From Daphnia pulex (taxonomy: Eukaryota > Arthropoda > Branchiopoda > Diplostraca > Daphniidae), in assembly GCF_021134715.1 (NCBI RefSeq), contig NC_060018.1, forward strand, positions 1,426,001 to 1,490,000: a stretch of 64,000 nt of DNA, read 5' to 3'. The notes beneath the pieces are model-generated. The model ran no database searches, was not told the DNA's origin, and saw nothing but the letters and a program-made list of their open reading frames with translations. This document shows positions 35,711 through 58,430 of this stretch, piece by piece. The stretch's first letter is position 1. Each line of letters opens with the position of its first letter. Position numbers and translations under genes: made by a program.

Positions 35711-35783
35711 TCTCACGGTCTCACCACTGGTAGGTAGGATGTTTCCGTGTTTGCAATTAAAACTACTATTGTCGTTGGGGCTG

Positions 35784-36085: not shown

Positions 36086-37985
36086 CGGCTGTGTTTTATT
36101 TGGGCAACACCGCTTCACAATTCTCATGACAGTTCGTCTGCACGTTAATGGTTCCCGTAATTCCGTTCCTCGTCGAAGTCCTAAGTCCTAACATAAAAAT
36201 TTTCGTAGGATTTTCAATTAAGCATCATGTTATTTTAAAAAAAGTCAGCCATGTCACTGTCAGCATGTCAGCTATGGAATTGTTTTATGTGGAATGCGTT
36301 GTAAAATTTTCTTTTCGTTTTTTCTAGTAGTTTCTCTACTGCATGATCAATCGTAATTCATTTGTTAGACACTTAAACAAGTCACGTTTTAAGGAAATGT
36401 TTGAAACCACTTTGGATTCCCAGACTGCATCGTGAACCACATCGTGTGACTACAACAGTTGAAGCATGAATTCTTCTTGTGTGCATCGGATTTTCAATCT
36501 CTGTTCTGTAAGTGGTGGGTGTTGCAAGAAATTTATTTTCTCAGGATCTGTGTCTGGCTATCATCTGGCTGCTTCAACAACTCAATGCAAAAGTTTAACT
36601 GTGAACGTGAGTCTTGAGATTATTGGGTAAGGCTTATTAAGCTTTTGATTTGTGCATACTTAACATTTTCTGTAGATTAAAATTCCTCATATCTCTATCT
36701 CTTATTTCCCCAAATGTATCTAGGTTCACAAGTGTGAGTGGCAAGTAACACTCTGACTTCTCCCCAGAAAATGTATCAACTGCCAGCAACCATGCAGATG
36801 ATGGATTTGAAAAGATTATAGCTTTGAAAGCTTTTCAGTTTCCTCCAGATCTCAATTTTGGTAATCAAGTTTAAGCTCTCCTTCATCAGGTAAATATTTC
36901 CTGAAAAGTCTTATTGTTTTATGTAAGAGTATGACACAAAAGAACTGCATTCTTTCTAAATGATTTAATGTTTTCATTAAAGGGTGATGTGACGAACCAT
37001 TTAAATTCGGCTAGTCAACATTCCGTTTTTATGTAAGGTTAGGCTTGATAATCCCGTTTTTGCTTAATAGTACCGCACAGAAGTTTTCCCTTATTTTGAT
37101 CACTTCATTTCCTCAACCTAATTCCCTCTTAGCGCGTGTGTCTCTCCCCTACCCAATATATTACTTGTTCTATCCTATTCAATTCCGCGTACACCGTTTA
37201 AAGAATTAAGGTGGCTTTCATCCTTCTTTCATCTTTCGGTATTCTTGCTTTTTTTCTTACACAGAGATAAAATCTGTCTTCTAAAAATATTTTGGGGAAG
37301 GTCGGGTAAAGATGAATTAAAATTGCTTTTGTCAACTGGTGGTGGTGACTATTAAACGCACTGCAGATTTAAATTTTATTGCATTACAAAAAAGTAATCC
37401 ATTTACATAACAATTTTCGTTTCAGGCTTATCCGTTTGGAGTAGGAAATCTCTTATTACTCAAATATATTTACTGAATAATTATTCAGTAAAGACAGTTT
37501 ATCCCGTTTCCCCCGACTCGTGTGCTTGAACCTCTAAGACGCGACTTACTTGAAAGACAATATTGCGCAAACGATGTAGGAAAAGAAGAGGGCGAGAAAA
37601 ATAACGCGGTAATGTCCAAACACTGAAACCTGTTAAGCGAAGGTGAAATTGAAGTGAAATTCAGTCTATTCCGTTTCTTTTATTGCGAAATCTATTCCTG
37701 TCACTCCACTCGCATCTGATCTAGGTTGCTGTATTGAGTAGCGCATCAAAACGGAGTTTAGTTCGTCTTCTGTTCACTGTCTTACTAATTCGTTCCATAC
37801 ACTGGATGGTACCGTCCATCAGATTGGACCTGCAGAACGCACAGTCGCGGAAGTAAGGCGGTTGTGCTGCCACATCTTTCTACAGTAAATGCAATGGCAG
37901 GTTGATCATCTATGTCATCCTCCAATTAGAATTGGTATGAATCTAAAATGTTTTCGTTCTTATTTTTTTCTTATTGACTTTTGAT
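36086..37985. other. Outer left arm without a recognised gene
   Basis: No protein-like frame is supported. Several GT-AG-like segments (for example near 36544-36607 and 36724-36890) could be exons of a non-coding transcript. A perfect 24-bp palindrome sits at 37469-37492. The mirror region is 56539-58430. Confidence 0.4.
37469..37492. repeat. Perfect 24-bp palindrome (left arm copy)
   Basis: TTTACTGAATAA followed directly by its reverse complement TTATTCAGTAAA. The same sequence is kept exactly in the right arm at 57032-57055. Confidence 0.7.
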
Positions 37986-38189
37986 TCATTTAATATGTTT
38001 AACCGAGTAGAAGGTGAATCTGGACTTTCGGCCAGTGTAGCAAAGACCGGACGCCAGGTTTTGTTCCAACTCCACAACTTGCCAAACATCTGGCAGCCTG
38101 TCTTCAATCCTAAAAGTTACGCACCCTTTCCAAGCCGTTAGAAAGTGATATTTTCTATGTTTTGAGCGTTCCCCCGTCGTATTAGCCAA
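37986..38189 (-). other. Unassigned 67-codon frame (left arm)
   Basis: The frame reads ...LTAWKGCVTFRIEDRLPDVW... and LCYTGRKSRFTFYSVKHIK before a stop. It has fairly protein-like composition but lacks a convincing ATG; the frame opens at TTG. The translation is unchanged in the right arm (56335-56538), although the outer arms have diverged. It might be an internal or last exon of an unrecognised gene. No domain is identified. Confidence 0.25.
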
Positions 38190-39403
38190 TTTTGATTCCG
38201 ATTTTTTTACCGACTGTTATCTGATGTGAATTTATCGGATGAAGAACCGGAAAAGAAGTCGGAATTGGTGACTCTAGTAATGCTACAAGTTTTCCTTATT
38301 AAAGTGACGTTAACGTGACTTTATCTGTGGTCACAAAATGACTAGCAGCAACCGCTGTGGCTCTCTTTAGTCTTTAGTTCTTTACAAAGATGCGGACGTT
38401 TTTTTTTTTTTTTTTAATTGCGTAATAGGAAATGGCAATGTTGTTCGTTCCTTTAAATATGGCTGCTAGTATTCGACACGAGAATCGACAGCAACTGACA
38501 GCACTACGTAGAAGCCGTCCCGTCATGTTTGTAGAAGATATACTCCATTTAAATTTTTGATTCAAACAGCAGTGTAACAGCCGAGCTTTCTTATGTAGTT
38601 GTCAGTTTTATGTGAAATGTTTGGCTGGACGCCAAATTAGAACCGTTCGTGAATGTTGAGAAATGTATCGCTTCTATAGGTGTATTTGTGTCTTACAGGT
38701 GGCGGAGTGTCTGTTCGTGAGTGAATGAAGCAAGTTCGCCATTTGCTTTTGAGACGGTGGACCACAGGTGGACGGAAATGTCAAATGTGATGCTGTGTTT
38801 TTTGTTTTTTTTTTTACATGTTAAAATGCTGAAGTAATTTCACACAATTCGACCAAGCTGAATCGAAAGTGAACAACTCTTAAAGCAAGTAAGTGAACCG
38901 TGAGAGCTTTTACTTTTCAAAAAATCCATTTTCTAATCTACTTGGATTTATTTTGTAAAAGCATGTCGAAGATCTTCTTTCTTCTGCCTTTTTCTACGTG
39001 ATAGCTGCCATGTCATAAAGATGCGTCTTTGAGAGAGTCTCACTATATTGCAAGACAAAAGTGTGATGAAAATAGGAATACTGAAATGGTAATGTACTTT
39101 TAAGATAAATCAAGTAGGTTAGCATTTTGTTCTTGATGTCGAAGACAAGTGACATCTTATTTCGTGCTTCTAAATAAGAGCTTTTGTGTAAAGTTCTTGT
39201 TAAGAGTTGTAAATTTATTTTAATCGGTCAGTGCATAGAAATTCCCTTTATTCTTAAAAACTTGAAATGAAAGCTTAACAATGTCATGAACTTTGGTCAT
39301 CTTGATTTATTTTTCTTGAGTTTAGTGTACATTTCAAGTATATCATTATTGGTATCTTTTTTACAATTCAAATTGTTATTGTTCTTTTGCTTTGTAGATT
39401 TCC

Positions 39404-39808
39404 ATGGTCAGTTTGATGTTTGAGCTGCCTATGGTGTTGCTGTTTGGTGTACAGTGGTTTTGCAGTCATTTTCCAGTTGAGAGATATTCTGAAATGGAGC
39501 TTGTGGAGACTTGCAGTTCAACATCATACTATAATGTGTTATTTGCCTATGTTGGTGTCCATGCAGTATATGCAGTGATGAACAGTTGGGCTAGTCAATG
39601 TTGCCTGTGGCCGTCTGGCTTATTTTATCGGCTGCATTTTGTCGATATGTCTTCTCTTGCTACCTGTACCGTCGTTGAGGTAATGCCTGATGTACAGCCT
39701 CATTTAATTATTGACTTGAAGTTAATATCTCCGTTTTCATTTCAGTTGATTCGTTTGCCGCCGTTCCTTAGACTTGATCCACCGGTGAAACTAAGAAGAC
39801 GTTGCTGA
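39404..39808 (+). CDS. Hypothetical small hydrophobic protein (left arm copy)
   Basis: The coding exon follows a TTTGTAG acceptor, and an upstream AAGCAA/GTAAGT donor near 38888 suggests a leading untranslated exon. From ATG 39404 (MVSLMFELPMVLLFGVQWF) the frame runs to a GAG/GTAATG donor at 39679. It then joins in phase to 39746-39808, ending KLRRRC, for 112 residues. The 66-nt intron has no stop, so retention would give 134 residues. The protein is Cys/Tyr-rich with hydrophobic stretches at about 1-20 and 45-62. It is convergent with the secreted-protein gene at 39921 and has an equivalent copy in the right arm. No family is recognised. Confidence 0.4.
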   Translation: MVSLMFELPMVLLFGVQWFCSHFPVERYSEMELVETCSSTSYYNVLFAYVGVHAVYAVMNSWASQCCLWPSGLFYRLHFVDMSSLATCTVVEVMPDVQPHLIIDLKLISPFSFQLIRLPPFLRLDPPVKLRRRC

Positions 39809-39920
39809 AATTCAAGATTGATCAAAAAACTATGTAGATAAATTACAAGTGCATAATCTGGGCTCCCTTCTTCAGTGGCCCCGTTTCCCTAAATAACCAC
39901 TAACCAACGCCCGCCGGTGG

Positions 39921-40454
39921 TCACTCACTCGCTGCGACAACCAGGAGGAAGGGAGATGTTTGGTCGAACGGGGACTTGCAAGCCGCTTGATTCGATGAAA
40001 TCTGTTGGAGGGTCATGAGTCTAAGCCGGAAGTCTTCTATGATGCATTGCTCTCTTAAAAACTGTTCCTCGACTCTCTTCGCTCTATTTCCGGTTTCTCT
40101 TAACCATGGCCGGGTAATCTCCCTGGTCGAGTCAGTCGGGCAGTGTCTTCCCCTGCTTGACTGGCTGCAGTTTGAACCGGACGGTCTGTTAAAATAAGAA
40201 TTTAAATCTAGAACAACGCCTTTGAGCGGCCCGGACAATCCTGAATCCTTTAGGGTTGCCATTCCATCGAGGCTTAAACGAGGGTACGTAATTACACGTT
40301 AGTCAAATTGCTAAAGCTACAAATTCAATTGTTTGTATTACCCAGATGACGCGGAGGTGTTGCCCATTGAGGGGTTTTGGTGACAAGGAGTCAATGAACG
40401 AAATGCTAAACCAAATAAAAAAAATATTAAAAAAGGTAATGCTAGATACGACAT
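39921..40454 (-). CDS. Two-exon secreted orphan protein (left arm copy)
   Basis: Exon 1 (40454-40342) starts with a clear signal peptide, MSYLALPFLIFFLFGLAFRS, followed by LTPCHQNPSMGNTSASS. Exon 2 (40272-39921) joins in phase through a 69-nt GT-AG intron and continues GLDGMATLKDSGLSGPLKG. It goes on to a Ser/Arg/Cys region (GSNCSQSSRGRHCPTD), a charged, possibly helical segment (RAKRVEEQFLREQCIIEDFR) and a hydrophobic end, giving 154 residues. A TATA box (TATATAAAG, 40507-40515) lies 53 bp upstream of the ATG. The protein is presumably exported; its role is unknown. The right-arm copy is one codon longer. The helical segment before a Cys faintly recalls growth-factor propeptides, but I do not claim that. 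Confidence 0.6.
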
Positions 40455-40506
40455 GAAGCTTTTGCTTTCGCAGAGAATAATGTGTATTTGTGTGCAACCA
40501 ACGATC

Positions 40507-40515
40507 CTTTATATA
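40507..40515 (-). promoter_or_regulatory. TATA box of the secreted orphan gene (left arm)
   Basis: TATATAAAG on the minus strand, upstream of ATG 40454 and preserved at the mirror position 54002-54010 in the right arm. Confidence 0.6.
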
Positions 40516-41329
40516 TCCGAGCCGAGTCCTTTCCATCTATTCGGTGTGAAGAGAAAAACCCGAATTTCAACACATTTTACTGCTTAGCAACGAAAACAAA
40601 GCGAGTGTCAAAACATCGTTTTACTTGCGCATACTTTATTGCGGTAGAAACGCGTTGATCATGTAACAGGGTAAATTTTTTCCCTTTTGTTCATGCAGCA
40701 CCAAACGACACGCGATAGGTTCCGGCGGTCATCAACTATTCAAGATGGTAGACCTGTCGATGTAAAAGACAGGGTAAGGATAGCTCCTGTAAATGTTATT
40801 CATTTATGTTAAAAGCTGCTAGTAGGATCGCATGGTTGAATCTGCGGTTACAAAATCCATGGGCCTAGAGTTCAGGTATTGTCAATCTATCATTCGATTT
40901 GTGTTTTAGATTCTCCTTAATCAGTTGTGGAAATACGAGCATCATTTAAGTTCATTTTTGAGTTAGCGTTGTGAACGTAACGGACGAACTCTGACAGTCT
41001 ATCGAGCTTTAGAAATTTCGTCAAATTTCTTATTTTATTAATTTTATTTAACCGTTTTATGAGAAGCTTCGATTTGTATTTCTTTTTTTAAATTAATAAT
41101 TTACCTTTTTTTAAATCTCTATTTTGAGATTTTTTCCTCCGGTTGCAGGTACAAGGGTTATGTGTTTGAAACTTAGATAAGGTTGCAGTAGAATATTTTC
41201 AAAAAAGCCAATTGTTCAAACGGTTCGAAATTGAAGATTTATTCATTCACTGAATAAATGACTCAAATGTCAATTGGTATAAAGTGACTAAAGTTTAAGC
41301 CATTATCATTTATGATTTAATATTTATTT

Positions 41330-41726
41330 TGATATTGGATTTTGTAGACCCATCCCCAGCAACGTCAACCTGCAGAAAGAAAAAGGCCAGTTTCTATGGC
41401 CTTCAGACTCGAAGATCGCGGAGATAACTACGTAAAACTGGCATGGGGTGGCGTAGAGGTTGGGTGAGAATGACACGTTTTTCAACATTATCAAGCAGGT
41501 AGAATAGCCGCAAGGGTAAGCTATGTGGTATTCATTTTGATATTTTGGTTTTTGTAGACCCATCCCCGGCAAAGTCACCTGCAGAAGGAAAGGCCAGTTT
41601 GCATTTCAATTGAAGGTCATGGAGATCATTACATAAAAGGTGTTATGTAGTGGTGTAGAGGTTGGGTGAGAAAGGGACGTTTTGCATCATTATCAAAAAG
41701 GTAAAAAAGCCGCAAGGCATAAGAGG
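41330..41726. repeat. Diverged tandem duplication of about 200 bp upstream of the YYT-repeat gene (left arm)
   Basis: Two consecutive units share TTTTGTAGACCCATCCCC, a CCTGCAGAA...AAAGGCCAGTTT block, GTAGAGGTTGGGTGAGAA and GCCGCAAGG in the same order, about 200 bp apart. The second unit ends close to the TATA box at 41745. This could be a duplicated upstream regulatory module. The mirror copy is at about 52791-53187. Confidence 0.65.
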
Positions 41727-41744
41727 AGGGGTGAGAAAAAGTCG

Positions 41745-41779
41745 TATAAAAGGCGAGAGAAAATTTGACAGGGATCAGT
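41745..41779 (+). promoter_or_regulatory. TATA plus arthropod initiator of the YYT-repeat gene (left arm)
   Basis: TATAAAAG at 41745-41752 is followed about 30 bp later by TCAGT (41775-41779), the arthropod initiator consensus. The ATG of the first exon follows at 41841. The mirror copy on the minus strand has its TATA at 52765-52772. Confidence 0.6.
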
Positions 41780-41840
41780 CGAGCGAGTATCTCCGACACG
41801 GCAACAGCTGCATTCTTCGTCGTAATATCAGTTCGTTATC

Positions 41841-42208
41841 ATGGGTAATTTTGAGTCGGAAATCTATTCTATCTTTGTTGTTAGTTGTTCATACGACTAG
41901 TTACATTCGAAAAATAATTTCCAATTGTTTATTGCATAGTTAATTATGGTGTAGTGTTGCTGTTGTGTGTCGTATCGTTGATGTCGACCACGAGAGAAAA
42001 TCTTACAGAAGGAAAGAGAAAGGGCAACAGAAGTCAATCGAGTGAGCATCTCCGACCCGGCAACAACTGCATTCTTCGTCGCATCATCAGGTCGCAATTA
42101 CGGGTAAATAAATATTCTGTATTTCTACGTGGAATTTTGTATCAATTTCTATTTTTTCTATCTGATAATCTGTCCGTTATTGTTGAATATTTCATATTGT
42201 CTGGTTAA
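41841..42208 (+). pseudogene. First unit of a tandemly duplicated secreted-protein gene, chimeric (left arm)
   Basis: Exon 1 ends ATGG/GTAATT at 41844 and splices in phase to an exon at 41956, giving a signal-peptide-like MVLLLCVVSLMSTT. After that the frame runs into sequence that is the 5' UTR of the next unit. The words GCATTCTTCGTCG, found upstream of the first ATG, recur inside this reading frame at about 42070 and again at 43870. The expected repeat-rich second exon is therefore missing from this unit. It is probably a non-functional product of tandem duplication. Confidence 0.4.
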
Positions 42209-42217
42209 CTATTCCGT

Positions 42218-42600
42218 CGTGCTGTTATTGGATGTTGTATCATCGATGGCTGGGTCGACCACTGGTACCGATGTCTCCTGGATAAGGCGGATACCAAACT
42301 GCAACGCTGCCGCCTTACTACACAACAATATACGCAACGACCAGTTACTACACCGAGGTTGCACAGTTTGGTTTACAGTTAAACCACCAAGGATCCAGAT
42401 CATTACACCACAACTTGTGCTGCTCCTCGAGCTACACTACCAAAGCGCTAGAGTACTACGCCGAGGCTCCTAAGTACTACACCACCAAGGCACCTAAGAC
42501 TACGCAACTACGTATGCTGCCCCAACCTACGACACCGAGGCTTCAGCTTATTACACCACCAAAGCTGTCGAATACTACACAGGAGCGCCCAAGTACGATA
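42218..42600 (+). pseudogene. Degenerate YYTTKAP-repeat exon, copy 1 (left arm)
   Basis: Codons for the repeating pattern YYT-(T/E)-(K/E)AP are recognisable (YYAEAPKYYTTKAPK in one frame), but the frame shifts several times. The start of the exon aligns with copy 2 (VLL...VVSS..GS.TG). Such Tyr/Thr/Pro/Lys repeats are typical of secreted matrix, cuticle or adhesive-like proteins. No intact reading frame remains. Confidence 0.55.
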
Positions 42601-42775
42601 GAAATCAGTCGAGTGAGCTTCTCCCGACACCCATCACGGCAGCCCCGAAGTTTCGAATAAACTTCGCTTCAAACAGTGGAACGGCAAACAGTGAAGGTGA
42701 GCTCTTTATTATTGGAATTATGTGGAACATGTACTAATGACTTGTTTTCCTTCCTTGTCTGTTTTACGAACAAGA

Positions 42776-43835
42776 ATTCTACTGCAATCGCGTCGAATTG
42801 AATAGCAACGATAACACATTCGTACGTGTACACCGTGTTAACTTGACATGGTTGGTCGGAAAGCCAAACTTAACGATGGCGGTACCATCACCTACGACAA
42901 GTGCGTTATTGCCACAGGTAAACATTTTATTCCAAAAGAAATTCGTCTTTAAAAGTCTCAATGATTACACCTTTATGGAATGTTGAATAACTTTGATAAT
43001 CTTCCTGCTCGATAGTATCTAAGAGTCTTTTTAAACTGCTAGCAATTTATTTCTGTGAATTAGTTCTACGAATAGAATTAGTTCTACGAATTCCTCTAAA
43101 AATGGCCTTTATTTTCTTGTTAGGTGGTAAACGAAAATCTTTTCCAATCCCTGAGCGGTGCCCTTAAAGATGCCCACGAGCACGTAACGCTATTCCGCAA
43201 CATCGATGGCGGTAACATAGGCCGAGTTCTCCCTAAATATTTGAGCCAATGGATAACCGAGAAGGTGAAAGCGGAAAGTGTTAATGTGTTGCCCAAAGCT
43301 AATGTTGAGGTTGCAATTTTGCAAGACTACAAGGTCGCATTGACCTTAAACGATGGTCAAAAGGTAAACAGTTATTTCAGTACATGTTTTAGCGATGTTA
43401 ATTAAAATCTAAAAATTATTTTAGCAGATTTAAACCGAGTCGTCGCTGCTGCTGTCGGTTGGGACGCAAACACGGATTTGGCTGTCGCTTTTGGTTTGGA
43501 AATAAATTCCAATTTTGGTGGTTATTGAGTCAATACCGAGCTTGAAGCACGATCGAACGTCTGGTTGGTAAGGATCTTTGAACATTTTATTTCATATAAA
43601 TTGTAATACTTGTGACTAAAACTTAACCAACATTGACCGCTCTGATGTTGTTGTTAGATAGTATGTGCAGTTCTTGTTAAATTAGATTCTAATTATTGGG
43701 TATGGATTTTATTTTTTACTAGGCTGGAGATGTTGCGTCTGTTTGTGATATCAAATTGGGTCGTCGTCGTATGGAACATCATCACTTTGCTGTTGTATCA
43801 GGGCGATTGCTGGAGAGAAGAATACTGACAACGAA
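42776..43835 (+). pseudogene. AIFM1: AIFM1 (apoptosis-inducing factor) pseudogene (left arm)
   Basis: Four exon-like blocks match mitochondrial apoptosis-inducing factor. Block 1 (to 42917) reads VGRKAKLNDGGTITYDKC then VIATG. Block 2 (43124-43363) contains EHVTLFRNID joined directly to GRVLPKYLSQWITEKVKAE. Block 3 (about 43424-43567) reads VVAAAVGWDANTDLA and EINSNFGGY, then a stop where Arg is expected, then VNTELEARSNVW. Block 4 (from 43723) reads [20 protein letters not shown]. The NAD-binding segment between LFRNID and the KVLPEYLS-like motif is deleted, and there are at least two frameshifts. It is therefore a fragment of a duplicated intron-containing gene, not a functional oxidoreductase. 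It lies between two copies of the YYT-repeat exon. Confidence 0.8.
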
Positions 43836-43999
43836 ACATGGATGAACAACTGCAGTGCACTGTCACCAAGTGCATTCTTCGTCGTATTATCAGTACGCAA
43901 TCGGGTAAATATTCTGGTTCATGGAATTTGCATCAATTATTTGTTTTTATCTGTTAATGTACCATATTGAATATTAATGTTCAAATCAATTACCGCCTA

Positions 44000-44770
44000 T
44001 TTGATTGTAGTGTCGTGCTGTTGCCGTTTGTCGTATCGTTGAAGGTTGGGTCGATCACTGGTGTACCCATGTCTCCTGGTTATGGCGGATACCAAAGCAC
44101 CACGCCGTCGCCTTGCTACACAACGACAACATTCGCACCAACCGGTTACTACACTGAGGGCCACAATTACTACACCACCAAGGCTCCAGATTATTACACT
44201 GCAACTAATGCTGCCCCAAGCTAAATCACCAAAGATCCTGAGTACTACGCCGAGGCTCCCAAGTATTACTCAGTTCCTAGCTACTACACCGAGGCTTCAA
44301 CTTATTACACCACCAAAGCGGCTGAATACTACACCGAGCCGCCCAAGTACTTCACCACCAAGGCTCCAGAGTATTACACCACAACTTGTGCTTCCCCGAG
44401 CCGCTACACCGAAGCCCCGAAGTATTACTCTGCCCCAAGCTACACAAATACAACTGAGGCGTCCAAGTATTACGCAGCCCCGACTTACTACACAGCGGCT
44501 GCTCCCTTCGTACTACGTTGAATCGGAATACTACACCGAGGCTCCAGTTTACTACACCACAACCTACGCTACACCTAGCTACTACACCGAGGCCCTACAC
44601 TACCAAGGCACCCGAGTATTATAACACTACTTAAGCTGTTCCGACCAACTACACCGAACCTCCGAAGTATTACTCTATCGGTCTATCCCGATTTACTACA
44701 ACACTAAGGCACTTAAATATTACACCCCCCCTACGCTTCTCCAACTTATTACAGGGACGTTTCTAAATAC
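44000..44770 (+). pseudogene. YYTTKAP-repeat extracellular protein, copy 2, decayed (left arm)
   Basis: The first frame gives a hydrophobic VVLLPFVVSLKVG stretch, MSPGYGGYQSTTPSPCY, and then repeats such as YYTTKAPDYYT. A TAA interrupts at 44222 where TAC is expected. The same frame resumes with about 100 residues of YYTEAP/YYTTKA repeats before a frameshift near 44505, after which a third frame continues the pattern. An upstream unit at 43870-43905 repeats the 5' UTR motif GCATTCTTCGTCG, but its start codon context has decayed. Both lesions are also present in the right arm, so the copy was dead before the arms separated or was homogenised afterwards. Confidence 0.6.
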
Positions 44771-45115
44771 TAGAGTCGAATTTTCAATTTTAATAATTAT
44801 GTTCAGATTTGTCGGTAATATCTTAATAATTACTAGTCACTGGGAATTGTTGATCTTTAAAGAGAAATAAATTTTGTTTAACCTGGGTAATCATTTTGTA
44901 CGACTTCTCTTGCCACCTAAAATCTGGAGATGACCTATAACTTATGTAAAACTTCAAAGTTGTAAAAAATATACAAGTCGTGAACTAAAAATTTTTTTAT
45001 TATAAGTTATAAGACACAGCAAACAAAAACATTAAAAGGAATTGCTTTATTGTCCCACCTCCACCCACAATTCTACCACATTTTACAATCACATACATAC
45101 ATACACTTAAGTTAA

Positions 45116-45424
45116 CCCGTTGGCTGCCACGCCATACAACCCGTAGGTTGTACTCTACTGCTCTACGCGCCACGTCTGAAGGATCCGTGACCAAAGTGGG
45201 ACTTGCCATTGCTGACAAGTCCGGGCTGACACGGTGACAGGAGAATCCATCACCGTATCGACAAGGGGGAAGTCCCTATAGTGCATTGCCTTATCAGGCG
45301 CCTTGCGGCAAGTTTTGGGCTGGTGCGACTTTCCGACCCCGCGGCATGAAAACCACGAGACCGAACAGCGCACGCAGCCCGTGCTAAGTAGCTAGGGGTG
45401 GACAAAGGCGTGGCAGACAACGGG
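45116..45424. mobile_element. piggyBac-like MITE, 309 bp (left arm)
   Basis: The element starts CCCGTTGGCTGCCACGCC and ends with the inverse GGCGTGGCAGACAACGGG. The terminal inverted repeats differ at one base over 18. It is flanked by TTAA on both sides (45112-45115 and 45425-45428). TTAA target duplication and CCC...GGG ends are diagnostic of the piggyBac superfamily. There is no transposase frame, so it is a non-autonomous MITE. Confidence 0.85.
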
Positions 45425-45692
45425 TTAACTAACACTAACACAAACATATTACCAACAACAAATGATGATCCGCGCTGACACTTTGGAGATACCGGCGACG
45501 TTATGGTGTCCATCTTCTCGAAATTTCCTCTGCATTACCTGAATAAAGAGAAAACAATTCTTATTTACTGACATGCCAATAAAAGTTACATAATACAGAA
45601 AGAAACCATAATCAGGTTTTTTAGCTCAAAGATTTAAATATGCAATTTTTTAAAGTTTAAATCAAGCTTGCAATGTTGAGAACTGTTAAGAG

Positions 45693-48815: not shown

Positions 48816-49083
48816 CTCTTAACAGTTCTCAACATTGCAAGCTTGATTTAAACTTTAAAAAATTGCATATTTAAATCTTTGAGCTAAAAAACCTGATTAT
48901 GGTTTCTTTCTGTATTATGTAACTTTTATTGGCATGTCAGTAAATAAGAATTGTTTTCTCTTTATTCAGGTAATGCAGAGGAAATTTCGAGAAGATGGAC
49001 ACCATAACGTCGCCGGTATCTCCAAAGTGTCAGCGCGGATCATCATTTGTTGTTGGTAATATGTTTGTGTTAGTGTTAGTTAA

Positions 49084-49392
49084 CCCGTTGTCTGCCACGC
49101 CTTTGTCCACCCCTAGCTACTTAGCACGGGCTGCGTGCGCTGTTCGGTCTCGTGGTTTTCATGCCGCGGGGTCGGAAAGTCGCACCAGCCCAAAACTTGC
49201 CGCAAGGCGCCTGATAAGGCAATGCACTATAGGGACTTCCCCCTTGTCGATACGGTGATGGATTCTCCTGTCACCGTGTCAGCCCGGACTTGTCAGCAAT
49301 GGCAAGTCCCACTTTGGTCACGGATCCTTCAGACGTGGCGCGTAGAGCAGTAGAGTACAACCTACGGGTTGTATGGCGTGGCAGCCAACGGG
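49084..49392. mobile_element. piggyBac-like MITE, 309 bp (right arm)
   Basis: Mirror copy of 45116-45424 with the same CCCGTTG... termini and flanking TTAA (49080-49083 and 49393-49396). Insertion at the same site in both arms shows that it predates the inverted duplication. Confidence 0.85.
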
Positions 49393-49737
49393 TTAACTTA
49401 AGTGTATGTATGTATGTGATTGTAAAATGTGGTAGAATTGTGGGTGGAGGTGGGACAATAAAGCAATTCCTTTTAATGTTTTTGTTTGCTGTGTCTTATA
49501 ACTTATAATAAAAAAATTTTTAGTTCACGACTTGTATATTTTTTACAACTTTGAAGTTTTACATAAGTTATAGGTCATCTCCAGATTTTAGGTGGCAAGA
49601 GAAGTCGTACAAAATGATTACCCAGGTTAAACAAAATTTATTTCTCTTTAAAGATCAACAATTCCCAGTGACTAGTAATTATTAAGATATTACCGACAAA
49701 TCTGAACATAATTATTAAAATTGAAAATTCGACTCTA

Positions 49738-50508
49738 GTATTTAGAAACGTCCCTGTAATAAGTTGGAGAAGCGTAGGGGGGGTGTAATATTTAAGTGCC
49801 TTAGTGTTGTAGTAAATCGGGATAGACCGATAGAGTAATACTTCGGAGGTTCGGTGTAGTTGGTCGGAACAGCTTAAGTAGTGTTATAATACTCGGGTGC
49901 CTTGGTAGTGTAGGGCCTCGGTGTAGTAGCTAGGTGTAGCGTAGGTTGTGGTGTAGTAAACTGGAGCCTCGGTGTAGTATTCCGATTCAACGTAGTACGA
50001 AGGGAGCAGCCGCTGTGTAGTAAGTCGGGGCTGCGTAATACTTGGACGCCTCAGTTGTATTTGTGTAGCTTGGGGCAGAGTAATACTTCGGGGCTTCGGT
50101 GTAGCGGCTCGGGGAAGCACAAGTTGTGGTGTAATACTCTGGAGCCTTGGTGGTGAAGTACTTGGGCGGCTCGGTGTAGTATTCAGCCGCTTTGGTGGTG
50201 TAATAAGTTGAAGCCTCGGTGTAGTAGCTAGGAACTGAGTAATACTTGGGAGCCTCGGCGTAGTACTCAGGATCTTTGGTGATTTAGCTTGGGGCAGCAT
50301 TAGTTGCAGTGTAATAATCTGGAGCCTTGGTGGTGTAGTAATTGTGGCCCTCAGTGTAGTAACCGGTTGGTGCGAATGTTGTCGTTGTGTAGCAAGGCGA
50401 CGGCGTGGTGCTTTGGTATCCGCCATAACCAGGAGACATGGGTACACCAGTGATCGACCCAACCTTCAACGATACGACAAACGGCAACAGCACGACACTA
50501 CAATCAAA
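49738..50508 (-). pseudogene. YYTTKAP-repeat protein, copy 2, decayed (right arm)
   Basis: Mirror of 44000-44770, with the same premature TAA (at 50284-50286) and the same later frameshift. Translations of both arms are identical over the frames compared. Confidence 0.6.
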
Positions 50509-50672
50509 TAGGCGGTAATTGATTTGAACATTAATATTCAATATGGTACATTAACAGATAAAAACAAATAATTGATGCAAATTCCATGAACCAGAATATT
50601 TACCCGATTGCGTACTGATAATACGACGAAGAATGCACTTGGTGACAGTGCACTGCAGTTGTTCATCCATGT

Positions 50673-51739
50673 TTCGTTGTCAGTATTCTTCTCTCCAGCA
50701 ATCGCCCTGATACAACAGCAAAGTGATGATGTTCCATACGACGACGACCCAATTTGATATCACAAACAGACGCAACATCTCCAGCCTAGTAAAAAATAAA
50801 ATCCATACCCAATAATTAGAATCTAATTTAACAAGAACTGCACATACTATCTAACAACAACATCAGAGCGGTCAATGTTGGTTAAGTTTTAGTCACAAGT
50901 ATTACAATTTATATGAAATAAAATGTTCAAAGATCCTTACCAACCAGACGTTCGATCGTGCTTCAAGCTCGGTATTGACTCAATAACCACCAAAATTGGA
51001 ATTTATTTCCAAACCAAAAGCGACAGCCAAATCCGTGTTTGCGTCCCAACCGACAGCAGCAGCGACGACTCGGTTTAAATCTGCTAAAATAATTTTTAGA
51101 TTTTAATTAACATCGCTAAAACATGTACTGAAATAACTGTTTACCTTTTGACCATCGTTTAAGGTCAATGCGACCTTGTAGTCTTGCAAAATTGCAACCT
51201 CAACATTAGCTTTGGGCAACACATTAACACTTTCCGCTTTCACCTTCTCGGTTATCCATTGGCTCAAATATTTAGGGAGAACTCGGCCTATGTTACCGCC
51301 ATCGATGTTGCGGAATAGCGTTACGTGCTCGTGGGCATCTTTAAGGGCACCGCTCAGGGATTGGAAAAGATTTTCGTTTACCACCTAACAAGAAAATAAA
51401 GGCCATTTTTAGAGGAATTCGTAGAACTAATTCTATTCGTAGAACTAATTCACAGAAATAAATTGCTAGCAGTTTAAAAAGACTCTTAGATACTATCGAG
51501 CAGGAAGATTATCAAAGTTATTCAACATTCCATAAAGGTGTAATCATTGAGACTTTTAAAGACGAATTTCTTTTGGAATAAAATGTTTACCTGTGGCAAT
51601 AACGCACTTGTCGTAGCTCGTAGGTGATGGTACCGCCATCGTTAAGTTTGGCTTTCCGACCAACCATGTCAAGTTAACACGGTGTACACGTACGAATGTG
51701 TTATCGTTGCTATTCAATTCGACGCGATTGCAGTAGAAT
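50673..51739 (-). pseudogene. AIFM1: AIFM1 pseudogene (right arm)
   Basis: Mirror of 42776-43835, sharing the deletion of the NAD-binding part, the in-frame stop before VNTELEARS and the frameshifts. In addition, a 7-bp tandem duplication (TACGAGC unit near 51615) breaks the ITYDKC block only in this arm, so it arose after the duplication. Confidence 0.8.
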
Positions 51740-51914
51740 TCTTGTTCGTAAAACAGACAAGGAAGGAAAACAAGTCATTAGTACATGTTCCACATAATTC
51801 CAATAATAAAGAGCTCACCTTCACTGTTTGCCGTTCCACTGTTTGAAGCGAAGTTTATTCGAAACTTCGGGGCTGCCGTGATGGGTGTCGGGAGAAGCTC
51901 ACTCGACTGATTTC

Positions 51915-52297
51915 TATCGTACTTGGGCGCTCCTGTGTAGTATTCGACAGCTTTGGTGGTGTAATAAGCTGAAGCCTCGGTGTCGTAGGTTGGGGCAGCA
52001 TACGTAGTTGCGTAGTCTTAGGTGCCTTGGTGGTGTAGTACTTAGGAGCCTCGGCGTAGTACTCTAGCGCTTTGGTAGTGTAGCTCGAGGAGCAGCACAA
52101 GTTGTGGTGTAATGATCTGGATCCTTGGTGGTTTAACTGTAAACCAAACTGTGCAACCTCGGTGTAGTAACTGGTCGTTGCGTATATTGTTGTGTAGTAA
52201 GGCGGCAGCGTTGCAGTTTGGTATCCGCCTTATCCAGGAGACATCGGTACCAGTGGTCGACCCAGCCATCGATGATACAACATCCACGACGGCAGCA
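51915..52297 (-). pseudogene. Degenerate YYTTKAP-repeat exon, copy 1 (right arm)
   Basis: Mirror of 42218-42600. Small differences, including a short change near 52285-52310 (CACGACGGCAGCACGACGGC), distinguish it from the left copy. Confidence 0.5.
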
Positions 52298-52308
52298 CGA
52301 CGGCATAG

Positions 52309-52676
52309 TTAACCAGACAATATGAAATATTCAACAATAACGGACAGATTATCAGATAGAAAAAATAGAAATTGATACAAAATTCCACGTAGAAATACAG
52401 AATATTTATTTACCCGTAATTGCGACCTGATGATGCGACGAAGAATGCAGTTGTTGCCGGGTCGGAGATGCTCACTCGATTGACTTCTGTTGCCCTTTCT
52501 CTTTCCTTCTGTAAGATTTTCTCTCGTGGTCGACATCAACGATACGACACACAACAGCAACACTACACCATAATTAACTATGCAATAAACAATTGGAAAT
52601 TATTTTTCGAATGTAACTAGTCGTATGAACAACTAACAACAAAGATAGAATAGATTTCCGACTCAAAATTACCCAT
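52309..52676 (-). pseudogene. First unit of the tandem secreted-protein gene, chimeric (right arm)
   Basis: Mirror of 41841-42208, with the same ATGG/GTAATT exon end and the same MVLLLCVVSLMSTT signal-like start running into 5' UTR-derived sequence. Its promoter is the TATA at 52765-52772. Confidence 0.4.
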
Positions 52677-52764
52677 GATAACGAACTGATATTACGACGA
52701 AGAATGCAGCTGTTGCCGTGTCGGAGATACTCGCTCGACTGATCCCTGTCAAATTTTCTCTCGC

Positions 52765-52772
52765 CTTTTATA
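52765..52772 (-). promoter_or_regulatory. TATA box of the YYT-repeat gene (right arm)
   Basis: TATAAAAG on the minus strand, mirror of 41745-41752, with the same TCAGT initiator about 30 bp downstream. Confidence 0.6.
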
Positions 52773-52790
52773 CGACTTTTTCTCACCCCT

Positions 52791-53187
52791 CCTCTTATGC
52801 CTTGCGGCTTTTTTACCTTTTTGATAATGATGCAAAACGTCCCTTTCTCACCCAACCTCTACACCACTACATAACACCTTTTATGTAATGATCTCCATGA
52901 CCTTCAATTGAAATGCAAACTGGCCTTTCCTTCTGCAGGTGACTTTGCCGGGGATGGGTCTACAAAAACCAAAATATCAAAATGAATACCACATAGCTTA
53001 CCCTTGCGGCTATTCTACCTGCTTGATAATGTTGAAAAACGTGTCATTCTCACCCAACCTCTACGCCACCCCATGCCAGTTTTACGTAGTTATCTCCGCG
53101 ATCTTCGAGTCTGAAGGCCATAGAAACTGGCCTTTTTCTTTCTGCAGGTTGACGTTGCTGGGGATGGGTCTACAAAATCCAATATCA
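52791..53187. repeat. Diverged tandem duplication of about 200 bp (right arm)
   Basis: Mirror of 41330-41726, with both units preserved. Confidence 0.65.
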
Positions 53188-54001
53188 AAATAAATATTAA
53201 ATCATAAATGATAATGGCTTAAACTTTAGTCACTTTATACCAATTGACATTTGAGTCATTTATTCAGTGAATGAATAAATCTTCAATTTCGAACCGTTTG
53301 AACAATTGGCTTTTTTGAAAATATTCTACTGCAACCTTATCTAAGTTTCAAACACATAACCCTTGTACCTGCAACCGGAGGAAAAAATCTCAAAATAGAG
53401 ATTTAAAAAAAGGTAAATTATTAATTTAAAAAAAGAAATACAAATCGAAGCTTCTCATAAAACGGTTAAATAAAATTAATAAAATAAGAAATTTGACGAA
53501 ATTTCTAAAGCTCGATAGACTGTCAGAGTTCGTCCGTTACGTTCACAACGCTAACTCAAAAATGAACTTAAATGATGCTCGTATTTCCACAACTGATTAA
53601 GGAGAATCTAAAACACAAATCGAATGATAGATTGACAATACCTGAACTCTAGGCCCATGGATTTTGTAACCGCAGATTCAACCATGCGATCCTACTAGCA
53701 GCTTTTAACATAAATGAATAACATTTACAGGAGCTATCCTTACCCTGTCTTTTACATCGACAGGTCTACCATCTTGAATAGTTGATGACCGCCGGAACCT
53801 ATCGCGTGTCGTTTGGTGCTGCATGAACAAAAGGGAAAAAATTTACCCTGTTACATGATCAACGCGTTTCTACCGCAATAAAGTATGCGCAAGTAAAACG
53901 ATGTTTTGACACTCGCTTTGTTTTCGTTGCTAAGCAGTAAAATGTGTTGAAATTCGGGTTTTTCTCTTCACACCGAATAGATGGAAAGGACTCGGCTCGG
54001 A

Positions 54002-54010
54002 TATATAAAG
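54002..54010 (+). promoter_or_regulatory. TATA box of the secreted orphan gene (right arm)
   Basis: TATATAAAG, 53 bp upstream of ATG 54063; mirror of 40507-40515. Confidence 0.6.
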
Positions 54011-54062
54011 GATCGTTGGTTGCACACAAATACACATTATTCTCTGCGAAAGCAAAAGCTTC

Positions 54063-54599
54063 ATGTCGTATCTAGCATTACCTTTTTTAATATTTTTTTT
54101 ATTTGGTTTAGCATTTCGTTCATTGACTCCTTGTCACCAAAACCCCTCAATGGGCAACACCTCCGCGTCATCTGGGTAATACAAACAATTGAATTTGTAG
54201 CTTTAGCAATTTGACTAACGTGTAATTACGTACCCTCGTTTAAGCCTCGATGGAATGGCAACCCTAAAGGATTCAGGATTGTCCGGGCCGCTCAAAGGCG
54301 TTGTTCTAGATTTAAATTCTTATTTTAACAGACCGTCCGGTTCAAACTGCAGCCAGTCAAGCAGGGGAAGACACTGCCCGACTGACTCGACCAGGGAGAT
54401 TACCCGGCCATGGTTAAGAGAAACCGGAAATAGAGCGAAGAGAGTCGAGGAACAGTTTTTAAGAGAGCAATGCATCATAGAAGACTTCCGGCTTAGACTC
54501 ATGACCCTCCAACAGATATCATCATCGAATCAAGCGGCTTGCAAGTCCCCGTTCGACCAAACATCTCCCTTCCTCCTGGTTGTCGCAGCGAGTGAGTGA
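54063..54599 (+). CDS. Two-exon secreted orphan protein (right arm copy)
   Basis: Exons 54063-54175 and 54245-54599 join in phase to 155 residues. The signal peptide and sequence match the left-arm copy, except that QQISSNQ becomes QQISSSNQ through a 3-bp insertion near 54520. Because the change adds a whole codon, both copies stay open. The splice sites, TATA box and stop are all kept. The protein is probably secreted. It contains four cysteines after the signal peptide (in LTPCHQ, SNCSQ, RHCPT, REQCII), plus one near the end (AACKSP). No family is recognised. Confidence 0.6.
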
Positions 54600-54711
54600 C
54601 CACCGGCGGGCGTTGGTTAGTGGTTATTTAGGGAAACGGGGCCACTGAAGAAGGGAGCCCAGATTATGCACTTGTAATTTATCTACATAGTTTTTTGATC
54701 AATCTTGAATT

Positions 54712-55116
54712 TCAGCAACGTCTTCTTAGTTTCACCGGTGGATCAAGTCTAAGGAACGGCGGCAAACGAATCAACTGAAATGAAAACGGAGATATTAACT
54801 TCAAGTCAATAATTAAATGAGGCTGTACATCAGGCATTACCTCAACGACGGTACAGGTAGCAAGAGAAGACATATCGACAAAATGCAGCCGATAAAATAA
54901 GCCAGACGGCCACAGGCAACATTGACTAGCCCAACTGTTCATCACTGCATATACTGCATGGACACCAACATAGGCAAATAACACATTATAGTATGATGTT
55001 GAACTGCAAGTCTCCACAAGCTCCATTTCAGAATATCTCTCAACTGGAAAATGACTGCAAAACCACTGTACACCAAACAGCAACACCATAGGCAGCTCAA
55101 ACATCAAACTGACCAT
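54712..55116 (-). CDS. Hypothetical small hydrophobic protein (right arm copy)
   Basis: Mirror of the gene at 39404-39808. Coding exons on the minus strand would be 55116-54841 and 54774-54712, giving 112 residues, or 134 if the stop-free 66-nt intron is retained. The translation is identical to the left copy across the whole frame. It is convergent with the secreted-protein gene ending at 54599. Function is unknown. Confidence 0.4.
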   Translation of the reverse strand: MVSLMFELPMVLLFGVQWFCSHFPVERYSEMELVETCSSTSYYNVLFAYVGVHAVYAVMNSWASQCCLWPSGLFYRLHFVDMSSLATCTVVEVMPDVQPHLIIDLKLISPFSFQLIRLPPFLRLDPPVKLRRRC

Positions 55117-56334
55117 GGAAATCTACAAAGCAAAAGAACAATAACAATTTGAATTGTAAAAAAGATACCAATAATGATATACTTGAAATGTACACTAAAC
55201 TCAAGAAAAATAAATCAAGATGACCAAAGTTCATGACATTGTTAAGCTTTCATTTCAAGTTTTTAAGAATAAAGGGAATTTCTATGCACTGACCGATTAA
55301 AATAAATTTACAACTCTTAACAAGAACTTTACACAAAAGCTCTTATTTAGAAGCACGAAATAAGATGTCACTTGTCTTCGACATCAAGAACAAAATGCTA
55401 ACCTACTTGATTTATCTTAAAAGTACATTACCATTTCAGTATTCCTATTTTCATCACACTTTTGTCTTGCAATATAGTGAGACTGTCTCAAAGACGCATC
55501 TTTATGACATGGCAGCTATCACGTAGAAAATGGCAGAAGAAAGAAGATCTTCGACATGCTTTTACAAAATAAATCCAAGTAGATTAGAAAATGGATTTTT
55601 CGAAAAGTAAAAACTCTCACGGTTCACTTACTTGCTTTAAGAGTTGTTCACTTTCGATTCAGCTTGGTCGAATTGTGTGAAATTACTTCAGCATTTTAAC
55701 ATGTAAAAACAAAACAAAAAACACAGCATCACATTTGACATTTCCGTCCACCTGTGGTCCACCGTCTCAAAAGCAAATGGCGAACTTGCTTCATTCACTC
55801 ACGAACAGACACTCCGCCACCTGTAAGACACAAATACACCTAGAAGCGATACATTTCTCAACATTCACGAACGGTTCTAATTTGGCGTCCAGCCAAACAT
55901 TTCACATAAAACTGACAACTACATAAGAAAGCTCGGCTGTTACACTGCTGTTTGAATCAAAAATTTAAATGGAGTATATCTTCTACAAACAGGACGGGAC
56001 GGCTTCTACGTAGTGCTGTCAGTTGCTGTCGATTCTCGTGTCGAATAAACGAATACTAGCAGCCATATTTAAAGGAACGAACAACATTGCCATTTCCTAT
56101 TACGCAATTTAAAAAAAAAAAAAAACGTCCGCATCTTTGTAAAGAACTAAAGACTAAAGAGAGCCAAAGCGGTTGCTGCTAGTCATTTTGTGACCACAGA
56201 TAAAGTCACGTTAACGTCACTTTAATAAGGAAAACTTGTAGCATTACTAGAGTCACCAATTCCGACTTCTTTTCCGGTTCTTCATCCGATAAATTCACAT
56301 CAGATAACAGTCGGTAAAAAAATCGGAATCAAAA

Positions 56335-56538
56335 TTGGCTAATACGACGGGGGAACGCTCAAAACATAGAAAATATCACTTTCTAACGGCTTGGAAAGGG
56401 TGCGTAACTTTTAGGATTGAAGACAGGCTGCCAGATGTTTGGCAAGTTGTGGAGTTGGAACAAAACCTGGCGTCCGGTCTTTGCTACACTGGCCGAAAGT
56501 CCAGATTCACCTTCTACTCGGTTAAACATATTAAATGA
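56335..56538 (+). other. Unassigned 67-codon frame (right arm)
   Basis: Mirror of 37986-38189 with an identical translation (LTAWKGCVTFRIEDRLPDVW...). There is no clear ATG and no domain. The surrounding bases of the outer arm show several differences between arms, so the preserved frame may be meaningful, but this is weak evidence. Confidence 0.25.
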
Positions 56539-57031
56539 ATCAAAAGTCAATAAGAAAAAAATAAGAACGAAAACATTTTAGATTCATACCAATTCTAATT
56601 GGAGGATGACATAGATGATCAACCTGCCATTGCATTTACTGTAGAAAGATGTGGCAGCACAACCGCCTTACTTCCGCGACTGTGCGTTCTGCAGATCCAA
56701 TCTGATGGACGGTACCATCCAGTGTATGGAACGAATTAGTAAGACAGTGAACAGAAGACGAACTAAACTCCGTTTTGATGCGCTACTCAATACAGCAATC
56801 TAGATCAGATGCGAGTGGAGTGACAGGAATAGATTTCACAATAAAAGAAACGGAATAGACTGAATTTCACTTCAATTTCACCTTCGCTTAACAGGTTTCA
56901 GTGTTTGGACATTACCGCGTTATTTTTCTCGCCCTCTTCTTTTCCTACATCGTTTGCGCAATATTGTCTTTCAAGTAAGTCGCGTCTTAGAGGTTCAAGC
57001 ACACGAGTCGGGGGAAACGGGATAAACTGTC

Positions 57032-57055
57032 TTTACTGAATAATTATTCAGTAAA
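57032..57055. repeat. Perfect 24-bp palindrome (right arm copy)
   Basis: Same TTTACTGAATAATTATTCAG-centred perfect palindrome as at 37469-37492. Confidence 0.7.
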
Positions 57056-58430
57056 TATATTTGAGTAATAAGAGATTTCCTACTCCAAACGGATAAGCCT
57101 GAAACGAAAATTGTTATGGAAATGGATTACTTTTTTGTAATGCAATAAAATTTAAATCTGCAGTGCGTTTAATAGTCACCACCACCAGTTGACAAAAGCA
57201 ATTTTAATTCATCTTTACCCGACCTTCCCCAAAATATTTTTAGAAGACAGATTTTATCTCTGTGTAAGAAAAAAAGCAAGAATACCGAAAGATGAAAGAA
57301 GGATGAAAGCCACCTTAATTCTTTAAACGGTGTACGCGGAATTGAATAGGATAGAACAAGTAATATATTGGGTAGGGGAGAGACACACGCGCTAAGAGGG
57401 AATTAGGTTGAGGAAATGAAGCGATCAAAATAAGGGAAAACTTCTGTGCGGTACTAATAAGCAAAAACGGGATTATCAAGCCTAACCTTACATAAAAACG
57501 GAATGTTGACTAGCCGAATTTAAATGGTTCGTCACATCACCCTTTAATGAAAACATTAAATCATTTAGAAAGAATGCAGTTCTTTTGTGTCATACTCTTA
57601 CATAAAACAATAAGACTTTTCAGGAAATATTTACCCGATGAAGGAGATCTTAAACTTGATTACCAAAATTGAGATCTGGAGGAAACTGAAAAGCTTTCAA
57701 AGCTATAATCTTTTCAAATCCATCATCTGCAAGTTTGCTGGCAGTTGATACATTTTCTGGGGAGAAGTCAGAGTGTTACTTGCCACTCACACTTGTGAAC
57801 CTAGATACATTTGGGGAAATAAGAGATAGAGATATGAGGAATTTTAATCTACAGAAAATGTTAAGTATGCACAAATCAAAAGCTTAATAAGCCTTACCCA
57901 ATAATCTCAAGACTCATGTTCACAGTTAAACTTTTGCACTGAGTTGTTGAAGCAGCCAGATGATGGCCAGACACAGATCCTGAGAAAATAAATTTCTTGC
58001 AACACCCACCACTTACAGAACAGAGATTGAAAATCCGATGCACACAAGAAGAATTCATGCTTCAACTGTTGTAGTCATACGATGTGGTTCACGATACAGT
58101 CTGGGAATCCAAAGTGGTTTCAAACATTTCCTTAAAACGTGACTTGTTTAAGTGTCTAACAAATGAATTACGATTGCTCATGCAGTAGAGAAACTACTAG
58201 AAAAAACGAAAAGAAAATTTTACAACGCATTCTACATAAAACAATTCCATAGCTGACATGCTGACAGTGACATGGCTGACTTTTTTAAAATATCATGATG
58301 CTGAATTGAAAATCCTTCGAAAATTTTTATGTTAGGACTTCGACGAGGAACGGAATTACAGAAACCATTAACGTGCAGACGAACTTTTATGAGAATTGTG
58401 AAGCGGTGTTGCCAATATAAAAAACAGCCG

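What the first reader, a model, noticed from the sequence alone, without database searches (positions are those of the whole stretch)
36086..58430. A 22 kb near-perfect genomic palindrome with about 9.8 kb arms
The sequence of 36086-45876 returns in reverse complement at 48632-58430, with mirror coordinates summing to 94508-94524 throughout. Large palindromes with near-identical arms are best known from sex chromosomes and amplified loci. Here the palindrome carries small orphan genes and decayed gene copies between ordinary single-copy genes.
Basis: seen in the sequence. Interest (0 to 1): 0.9.

Follow-up and report, generated by a model that had tools for sequence, protein, structure and literature searches.

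The report
Dispersed palindrome family, arms kept alike
The 22 kb mirror-image stretch is real and is one of a family of related DNA palindromes spread over several chromosomes of a probable water-flea genome, whose two halves appear to be kept alike by copying each other rather than by any gene they carry.

Summary
The palindrome is confirmed: 36086-45876 and 58430-48632 align over 9,811 columns at 99.28%. It is not a lone oddity. Its inner arm ("core", 44934-47219) recurs in the same 133 Mb genome: of 50 places tallied, 22 are inverted pairs facing one shared centre. The window's "spacer" is not a true spacer: its first 1,343 bases are inner arm; the rest is a 5'-truncated R2-like retrotransposon in place of the matching inner arm on the right.

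Trees of half-palindromes separate two ages. Near the centre, halves at several loci pair with halves of OTHER loci, so the palindrome predates its dispersal. Farther out, the two halves of the same loci are identical. That is the mark of arm-to-arm gene conversion within a locus. In the window 41 of 49 differences lie in the outer 3 kb. The outer 2.56 kb is found whole only at this locus, yet on both arms, so arms seem able to take in flanking DNA. Cargo is decayed gene pieces and mobile-element remains. An assembly artefact is unlikely. It is a known kind of process in an unusual form.

The parts
36086..45876 (+). left arm as reported
   Evidence: self-BLASTN
48632..58430 (-). right arm as reported
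   Evidence: self-BLASTN
36086..38643 (+). outer 2.56 kb of the left arm: found whole only at this locus (both arms); carries most arm-arm differences
55877..58430 (-). mirror of the locus-specific outer part in the right arm
   Evidence: C2:1481877-1484430
38644..44933 (+). arm part shared with other loci (77-98% identity by piece), decayed gene pieces
44934..47219 (+). core: inner arm, with pieces at 50 tallied places; no coding signal
48632..49574 (-). what remains of the core on the right arm (943 b, 100% identical to the left)
47220..48631 (+). 5'-truncated R2-like non-LTR retrotransposon (within open frame 47139-48341, plus 3' tail) where the right inner core and the centre would be
45770..45990 (+). 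imperfect hairpin (about 227 b in other copies), the least variable stretch of the core; its tip is the retrotransposon target; 6 b missing at the tip here
43124..43402 (+). fragment related to apoptosis-inducing factor 1
   Evidence: PDB 4fdc, E 1.5e-9
43958..44870 (+). broken Tyr/Pro/Thr-rich repeat reading frames (YYTEAPKYY-like); no Pfam match for 44225-44518
35748..36085 (.). left flank: piece of a multi-copy family, cut off exactly at the arm boundary
58460..59712 (-). right flank: MYND-finger gene, with relatives mostly on C12

Best explanation
This is one member of a dispersed family of old inverted duplications. Shown: at several loci a palindrome with a common centre and two different sides is older than its copying to those loci; the parts of the arms farther from the centre were later made alike within the locus, while the stretch next to the centre often kept its old differences. 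Inferred: the two arms of one locus pair and repair each other (intra-chromosomal gene conversion, probably long tracts started by breaks in one arm). Inferred: a repair copy sometimes runs past the end of the arm into the flank, so local DNA becomes mirrored and the palindrome grows. Inferred for the window: an R2-like retrotransposon inserted at the hairpin tip of the right core and the inner half was lost, which turned a nearly spacer-less palindrome into one with a 2.75 kb middle. The structure most likely has no gene function of its own; likeness of the arms is a by-product of their geometry.
For: Recurrence: 50 core places tallied, 22 with both strands, all 22 in the same facing order. 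Trees and AU tests: in segment d2 the halves of C2_2176, C7_174 and C7_267 are rejected as sisters (p 1.6e-71, 1.7e-4, 1.4e-47), while in the neighbouring segment d1 the two halves of each of these loci are identical; conversely two side groups seen in d2 are rejected in d1 (p 0.024 and 9e-56). In d1 arms differ by under 1% at 13 of 16 loci and are identical at 9 of 16. Over the 13 loci with all three segments, arm-arm divergence relative to between-locus divergence is 0.20 (d1), 0.64 (d2), 0.83 (p, nearest the centre); p exceeds d1 in 12 of 13, Wilcoxon p 0.005. C7_267: no mismatch and one gap in 16 bins of 500 columns, then 79 mismatches in the last two bins, about 700 columns. Window: 41 of 49 differences in the outer 3,053 of 9,791 bases, binomial p 4e-14. 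Outer-arm tree: both arms identical or sisters at 4 of 4 loci with both. Locus-specific outer arm at two palindromes: the window and C7_267, where 97 of 104 listed matches of that part (two of them its own arms) lie on the same chromosome (40 of 66 candidates scored). The left-flank family sequence stops exactly at 36085 in 7 matches, though four relatives read go on alike for at least about 300 bases.
Against: Not all loci are homogenised: C7_1911 arms differ by 11.6% in d1, C7_1621 by 2.5%, C2_12892 by 1.7%. d2 and p do not differ from each other (p 0.34). At C2_903 the segment nearest the centre is more alike (0.8% different) than d2 (3.1%); at C7_1319 the differences sit mainly at the outer end of the stretch compared. 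Exact identity over kilobases could be helped by assembly polishing, though polishing would hardly remove 5-10% divergence. No reads, alleles or second assembly were seen. Flank capture rests on two loci, with no ancestral state; the direction of copying is not shown.
Confidence: 0.74

Rival explanations
1. Assembly artefact: two haplotypes or a fold-back read joined head to head.
For: Arm difference of about 0.7% is near what heterozygous haplotypes can show (recalled). A survey of parthenogenetic genomes warns that misassembly makes false palindromes (PMC7953838, passages).
Against: The same core and centre occur as inverted pairs at 22 of 50 tallied places. Arm divergence ranges from 0 to 18% by locus and segment. 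In the window the two flanks differ and the middle holds a retrotransposon piece on one side only. Side types near the centre are shared between loci.
Confidence: 0.06
2. Each palindrome formed anew and recently by fold-back (hairpin-primed) duplication of a single half, the centre being a fragile site.
For: 28 of 50 tallied places show one half only in the hits used, and three more diverged halves without a partner in the stretch fetched were read on C12, C9 and C1. Two palindromes include locus-specific flank, as fold-back would give.
Against: Side types near the centre are shared across loci. One single half, C2_525, keeps a mirrored stub of a lost half (read by eye). In the window the outer ~400 bases of arm are about 5% diverged and the inner 3 kb hold no difference, which a single event does not give.
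Confidence: 0.14
3. A transposon with giant terminal inverted repeats (foldback type, such as Galileo), moved by transposase as a unit.
For: Dispersed, inverted, short loop, arms of variable length and alike within a copy; foldback elements look like this (recalled; listing only).
Against: No fixed outer end: shared sequence stops at different points in different loci, and C2_405 and C2_1945 share further outer sequence that the window lacks. No matching short duplication by eye at the window's two outer junctions. The continuation of the left-flank family sequence is absent from the window. No transposase match among the frames scanned.
Confidence: 0.06

Closest known systems
Large palindromes of mammalian X and Y chromosomes with arm-to-arm gene conversion (PMC8981503, passages and one section)
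   Same: Long inverted arms over 99% alike, conversion within the locus, unstable spacers, arm in one species being flank in another.
   Different: Here many palindromes share one core and lie on several contigs; loops are mostly about 50 or 200 bases where intact; cargo is decayed; the stretch next to the centre often escapes homogenisation.
Human Y palindrome P8 with VCY: loss of an arm, growth by recruiting adjacent sequence, new palindrome nearby (PMC6790999, abstract and passages)
   Same: Death of one arm and growth by taking in flank are the events that are inferred here.
   Different: There seen as variants in living men with breakpoints read; here inferred from one assembly.
Palindromes of Adineta vaga and Folsomia candida (PMC7953838, passages)
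   Same: Palindromic arrangement in small invertebrate genomes.
   Different: Called there from gene colinearity; D. pulex could not be screened for lack of annotation. No shared core is mentioned in the passages seen.
Foldback / Galileo transposons (listing only; rest recalled)
   Same: Long inverted arms, dispersed, arms alike within a copy.
   Different: No fixed ends, no short target duplication at the window's junctions, no transposase found.
R2-clade and other target-specific retrotransposons (PMC4640811, passages)
   Same: Related to R2 proteins in the C-terminal part; insertion at one exact base of a repeated target.
   Different: The target is a palindromic hairpin tip of a dispersed repeat; the passages name rRNA, spliced-leader, tRNA and U2 genes, microsatellites, telomeric repeats and transposons as targets.

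Membership tests
Gene-converting palindrome | two inverted arms, near identical, short or moderate spacer | tested here: met
   for relatives
Gene-converting palindrome | arms of one locus more alike than copies at other loci, with signs that this came after duplication | tested here: met
   not at C7_1911 and only partly at C7_1621
Gene-converting palindrome | lies on a sex chromosome and carries germ-line genes (mammalian type) | not testable with these tools
   contigs are unnamed, no expression data
Foldback / TIR transposon | common outer termini in all copies | tested here: not met
   on the few loci whose outer ends were held
Foldback / TIR transposon | target-site duplication | tested here: not met
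   window junctions only, by eye
Foldback / TIR transposon | transposase in an autonomous copy | tested here: inconclusive
   none among seven arm and core frames of the window scanned with Pfam; other loci not scanned for it
R2-clade retrotransposon (47220-48631) | R2-type C-terminal endonuclease region | tested here: met
   PDB 9nl3 and 9dou (R2 proteins), E 1.8e-7 and 2.8e-7 over residues 234-385 of the frame; that this part is the endonuclease is recalled
R2-clade retrotransposon (47220-48631) | site-specific 3' junction | tested here: met
   same base in the window and 6 of 7 other 3' ends read letter by letter; C4 copy at the same tip in the other orientation
R2 proper | insertion in 28S rRNA genes | tested here: not met
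   3' flank of the window copy is the hairpin core

The most novel reading that the evidence does not exclude
The palindromes are a self-renewing target for their own parasite. An R2-like retrotransposon cuts at the perfect palindrome at the hairpin tip (present once per half); these cuts start the break repair that copies one arm onto the other, keeps the target sequence uniform, and sometimes drags flanking DNA into both arms. The family would then be an rDNA-like safe haven built of scattered palindromes. In favour: the hairpin is the least variable stretch of the core; in the window the right tip holds an R2-like copy and the left tip lacks 6 bases at the very same point; 13 other R2-like 3' ends run into this hairpin by alignment. 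That cuts drive the copying is untested.
Probability: 0.14. Interest if true: 0.78.

Novelty: new variant of a known kind. Interest (0 to 1): 0.55.

Why it matters
Palindromes that convert are best known from mammalian sex chromosomes, each with its own contents. A family of at least 22 related palindromes sharing one centre gives replicates: it allows the question of how far from a palindrome's centre conversion acts, and what happens when the centre is broken, to be asked with numbers. It also warns that near-identical inverted arms in an invertebrate genome need not be assembly faults.

Tried and rejected
Coding role of the core: variable sites show no codon-phase signal; indel lengths are multiples of three in 16 of 218 (d1), 18 of 432 (d2) and 60 of 132 (p) cases. 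I rejected a coding role, though p by itself is not decisive. Known RNA gene: no Rfam match in the window at gathering thresholds and no tRNA. Structured RNA in the hairpin: 30 distinct copies, 1,761 of 1,768 cells paired but no pair with a change on both sides among 59, so no evidence either way. Transposon with fixed ends: rejected on the loci held. Direction of flank capture in the window: undecided; the left side is cut inside a family sequence, while on the right the family likeness fades near the boundary by itself. Ionotropic-receptor nature of the C7_267 outer arm: one frame has a weak Lig_chan match below cut-off; the right-flank frame gave no alignment to another arm frame and no Pfam match, so that reading is by eye only. 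Literature: no report of such palindromes in Daphnia among the listings (20 of 64 papers listed; 13 of 14; 5 of 5), titles and abstract starts only; one Daphnia gene-family paper searched inside holds neither 'palindrom' nor 'gene conversion' (PMC12102780).

Species: 13 contigs, one carrying cox1, 133.19 Mb; a GH7 cellulase exon is 94 of 101 residues identical to PDB 4xnn, which I recall to be from Daphnia pulex; I also recall that the KAP4 assembly of that species has this size (papers name KAP4 as GCF_021134715.1, but I saw no size). So a Daphnia of the pulex group is likely, not proven.
Full report
OBSERVATION. Self-comparison of the window returns one large inverted pair, 36086-45876 against 58430-48632, 9,811 columns, 99.28%. 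The ends are sharp. A global alignment gives 49 events in the arm (40 mismatches, 9 gaps). From the outer end inward they number 24, 5, 12, 2, 0, 0, 6, 0, 0, 0 per kb; 41 of 49 lie in the outer 3,053 of 9,791 bases (binomial p 4e-14).

WHERE IT LIES. The window is C2:1426001-1490000 of a 133,188,837-base genome of 13 contigs; contig 13 carries cox1, so 12 chromosomes plus mitochondrion is likely. A cellulase exon on C11 is nearest to PDB 4xnn, 94 of 101 residues identical. I recall that entry as Daphnia pulex, and the genome size as that of its KAP4 assembly; identity of the species is inference.

A FAMILY. Searching the genome with the left arm, the spacer and the inner part gave 117, 72 and 100 matches (lower bounds, because only the best candidates are scored). 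The first 1,343 bases of the supposed spacer (45877-47219) are arm sequence in other copies. I call 44934-47219 the core. Core positions chosen fall at 50 places: 18 on C2, 20 on C7, 4 on C6, 3 each on C4 and C8, 1 each on C5 and C11; 22 of 50 hold both strands, all 22 in the same facing order. A place counts as single where only one half was among the hits typed in, and small pieces near the centre were left out, so 22 is a lower bound. Three more halves, 73-88% alike by piece, were later read on C12, C9 and C1 with no partner within the 2-3 kb fetched beyond their inner ends. Where the centre is intact the loop is mostly about 50 or about 200 bases (coordinates; sequences). One single place, C2_525, keeps a short mirrored stub of a lost half (read by eye).

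WHAT HAPPENED TO THE WINDOW'S CENTRE. Bases 47220-48631 carry the C-terminal part of an R2-like protein (PDB 9nl3 and 9dou) and match C9:4629080 at 80%. The 3' end sits at the tip of a hairpin in the right core; the empty site on C1 reads ...CCTGAACTATAGT|TCAGGAAAA.... The 5' end abuts the inner end of the left core at 47219/47220. So insertion with loss of the right inner core and loop turned a palindrome without much spacer into one with 2.75 kb between the reported arms; the order of these steps is inferred. The left tip lacks six bases (ACTATA) that most other tips listed have.

CONVERSION. I split the core into d1 (45034-45876), d2 (45877-46851) and p (46862-47219, next to the centre) and compared 39, 39 and 38 halves; two halves in d2 and one in p that covered 80% or less of the segment were left out. 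Both halves were held for 19 of the 22 paired places. In d1, arms of one locus differ by under 1% at 13 of 16 loci and are identical at 9 of 16, the window among them. In d2 and p there are groups made of one half from each of several loci: C2_2176_L with C2_272_R and C2_5046_L in d2, against C2_2176_R with C2_272_L and C2_5046_R in d2 and p; C7_267_R with C7_174_L; C7_1621_L, C7_1748_L and C7_1911_L. Forcing same-locus halves together in d2 is rejected at C2_2176, C7_174 and C7_267 (p 1.6e-71, 1.7e-4, 1.4e-47); in d1 the halves of each of these loci are identical, and two of the side groups are rejected (p 0.024, 9e-56). Three further tests could not be run because rows were identical. The side groups were named after the trees were seen, the same-locus pairs were not. 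So a palindrome with two different sides is older than these copies, and the parts away from the centre were later made alike within each locus. Over the 13 loci with all three segments, arm-arm divergence is 0.20, 0.64 and 0.83 of between-locus divergence for d1, d2 and p; p exceeds d1 in 12 of 13 (Wilcoxon p 0.005), d2 exceeds d1 in 10 of 13 (p 0.008), p and d2 do not differ (p 0.34). Exceptions: C7_1911 is 11.6% different in d1, C7_1621 2.5%, C2_12892 1.7%.

SHAPE OF THE TRACTS. At C7_267, 16 bins of 500 columns hold no mismatch and one gap; there are 14 mismatches in the outermost bin of the stretch compared and 79 in the last two bins (about 700 columns) toward the centre. At C2_405, 11 bins hold none, with 17 in the outer 1 kb and 10 in the last two bins. 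In the window, whose centre is disrupted, identity runs right up to the inner junction; the same is true of C2_13035, whose right half is cut short at the centre (2,139 of 2,139 identical). A third disrupted centre, C7_1319, does not fit so cleanly (19, 2, 2, 8 mismatches by bin), nor does C2_903 (0.8% in p against 3.1% in d2). I read this as conversion by long tracts that often stop short of an intact centre. Whether pairing near the centre is hindered, or whether fully symmetrical centres break and are lost, cannot be told from this.

ARMS THAT GROW. The outer part of the window's arms (36086-38640) has no other full copy: 22 matches, two of them the arms themselves, the other 20 at most 261 bases long and above 73% identity only where 100 bases or shorter. 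At C7_267 the arms reach C7:257558 and C7:278454, and L017:390-2500 is again found whole only in its two arms; 97 of 104 listed matches, the two arms included, lie on C7 (40 of 66 candidates scored). One frame there has a weak ligand-gated channel match below cut-off. The simplest reading is that flank was mirrored into the palindrome after it arrived. At the window's left boundary a family sequence stops exactly at 36085 in 7 matches, while four relatives read stay alike for at least about 300 bases more, and that continuation (one relative tested) is absent from the window: a true breakpoint. Growth by recruiting adjacent sequence has been seen directly at human palindrome P8 (PMC6790999, passages).

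CARGO. Core: no coding signal, with the reservation for p given under what was rejected. Arms: a fragment of apoptosis-inducing factor, repeat-rich broken frames; none of seven arm and core frames scanned has a Pfam match above cut-off. I see no reason to think that the arms are kept alike because of a gene; expression was not examined.

THE RETROTRANSPOSON. In one search, besides the window, 13 places show the R2-like 3' end running into the same hairpin arm by alignment coordinates (40 of 562 candidates scored). I read seven other R2-like 3' ends letter by letter: six run into the hairpin at the same base, C9:4630 runs into other DNA that shares TCAGGAA and CTCGATTTTGG. At C4 the element sits at the same tip in the opposite orientation relative to the hairpin, as a symmetrical target allows. 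Target-specific elements of this kind are known; the passages seen of one paper (PMC4640811) list rRNA, spliced-leader, tRNA and U2 genes, microsatellites, telomeric repeats and transposons as targets, so a repeat as target is not new in kind.

VERDICT. Real; an old palindrome family kept alike by copying between arms, with growth and decay. Known process, unusual form, and a good set of natural replicates.

Noticed in passing
47220-48631; L056, L057, L058, L059, L060, L062, L064: R2-like retrotransposon that inserts at one exact base, the tip of a palindromic hairpin in a dispersed repeat (6 of 7 other 3' ends read); also at C4:274 in the other orientation.
   Followed up: partly
C12:411928, 417131, 422334: Three R2-like matches at a regular spacing of 5,203 bases on one strand, as if in tandem.
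   Followed up: no
45112-45428: Within the core, a stretch bounded by TTAA with near-matching inverted ends, like a piggyBac-type MITE; read by eye, class name recalled.
   Followed up: no
45876: Left-arm hairpin tip lacks ACTATA at exactly the point where the right arm carries the R2-like insert.
   Followed up: partly
C7:1837200-1843035 and C7:1911379-1917143: Two copies about 70 kb apart in opposite orientation with nearly equal match scores to the arm, as if a palindrome on a larger scale.
   Followed up: no
31380-32791: Tubulin gene in at least two open pieces a few kb left of the palindrome; looks beta-type by eye.
   Followed up: partly
C1, C7, C8, C11 of G000: 30 GH7 cellulase matches, in line with a Daphnia-like genome.
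   Followed up: partly
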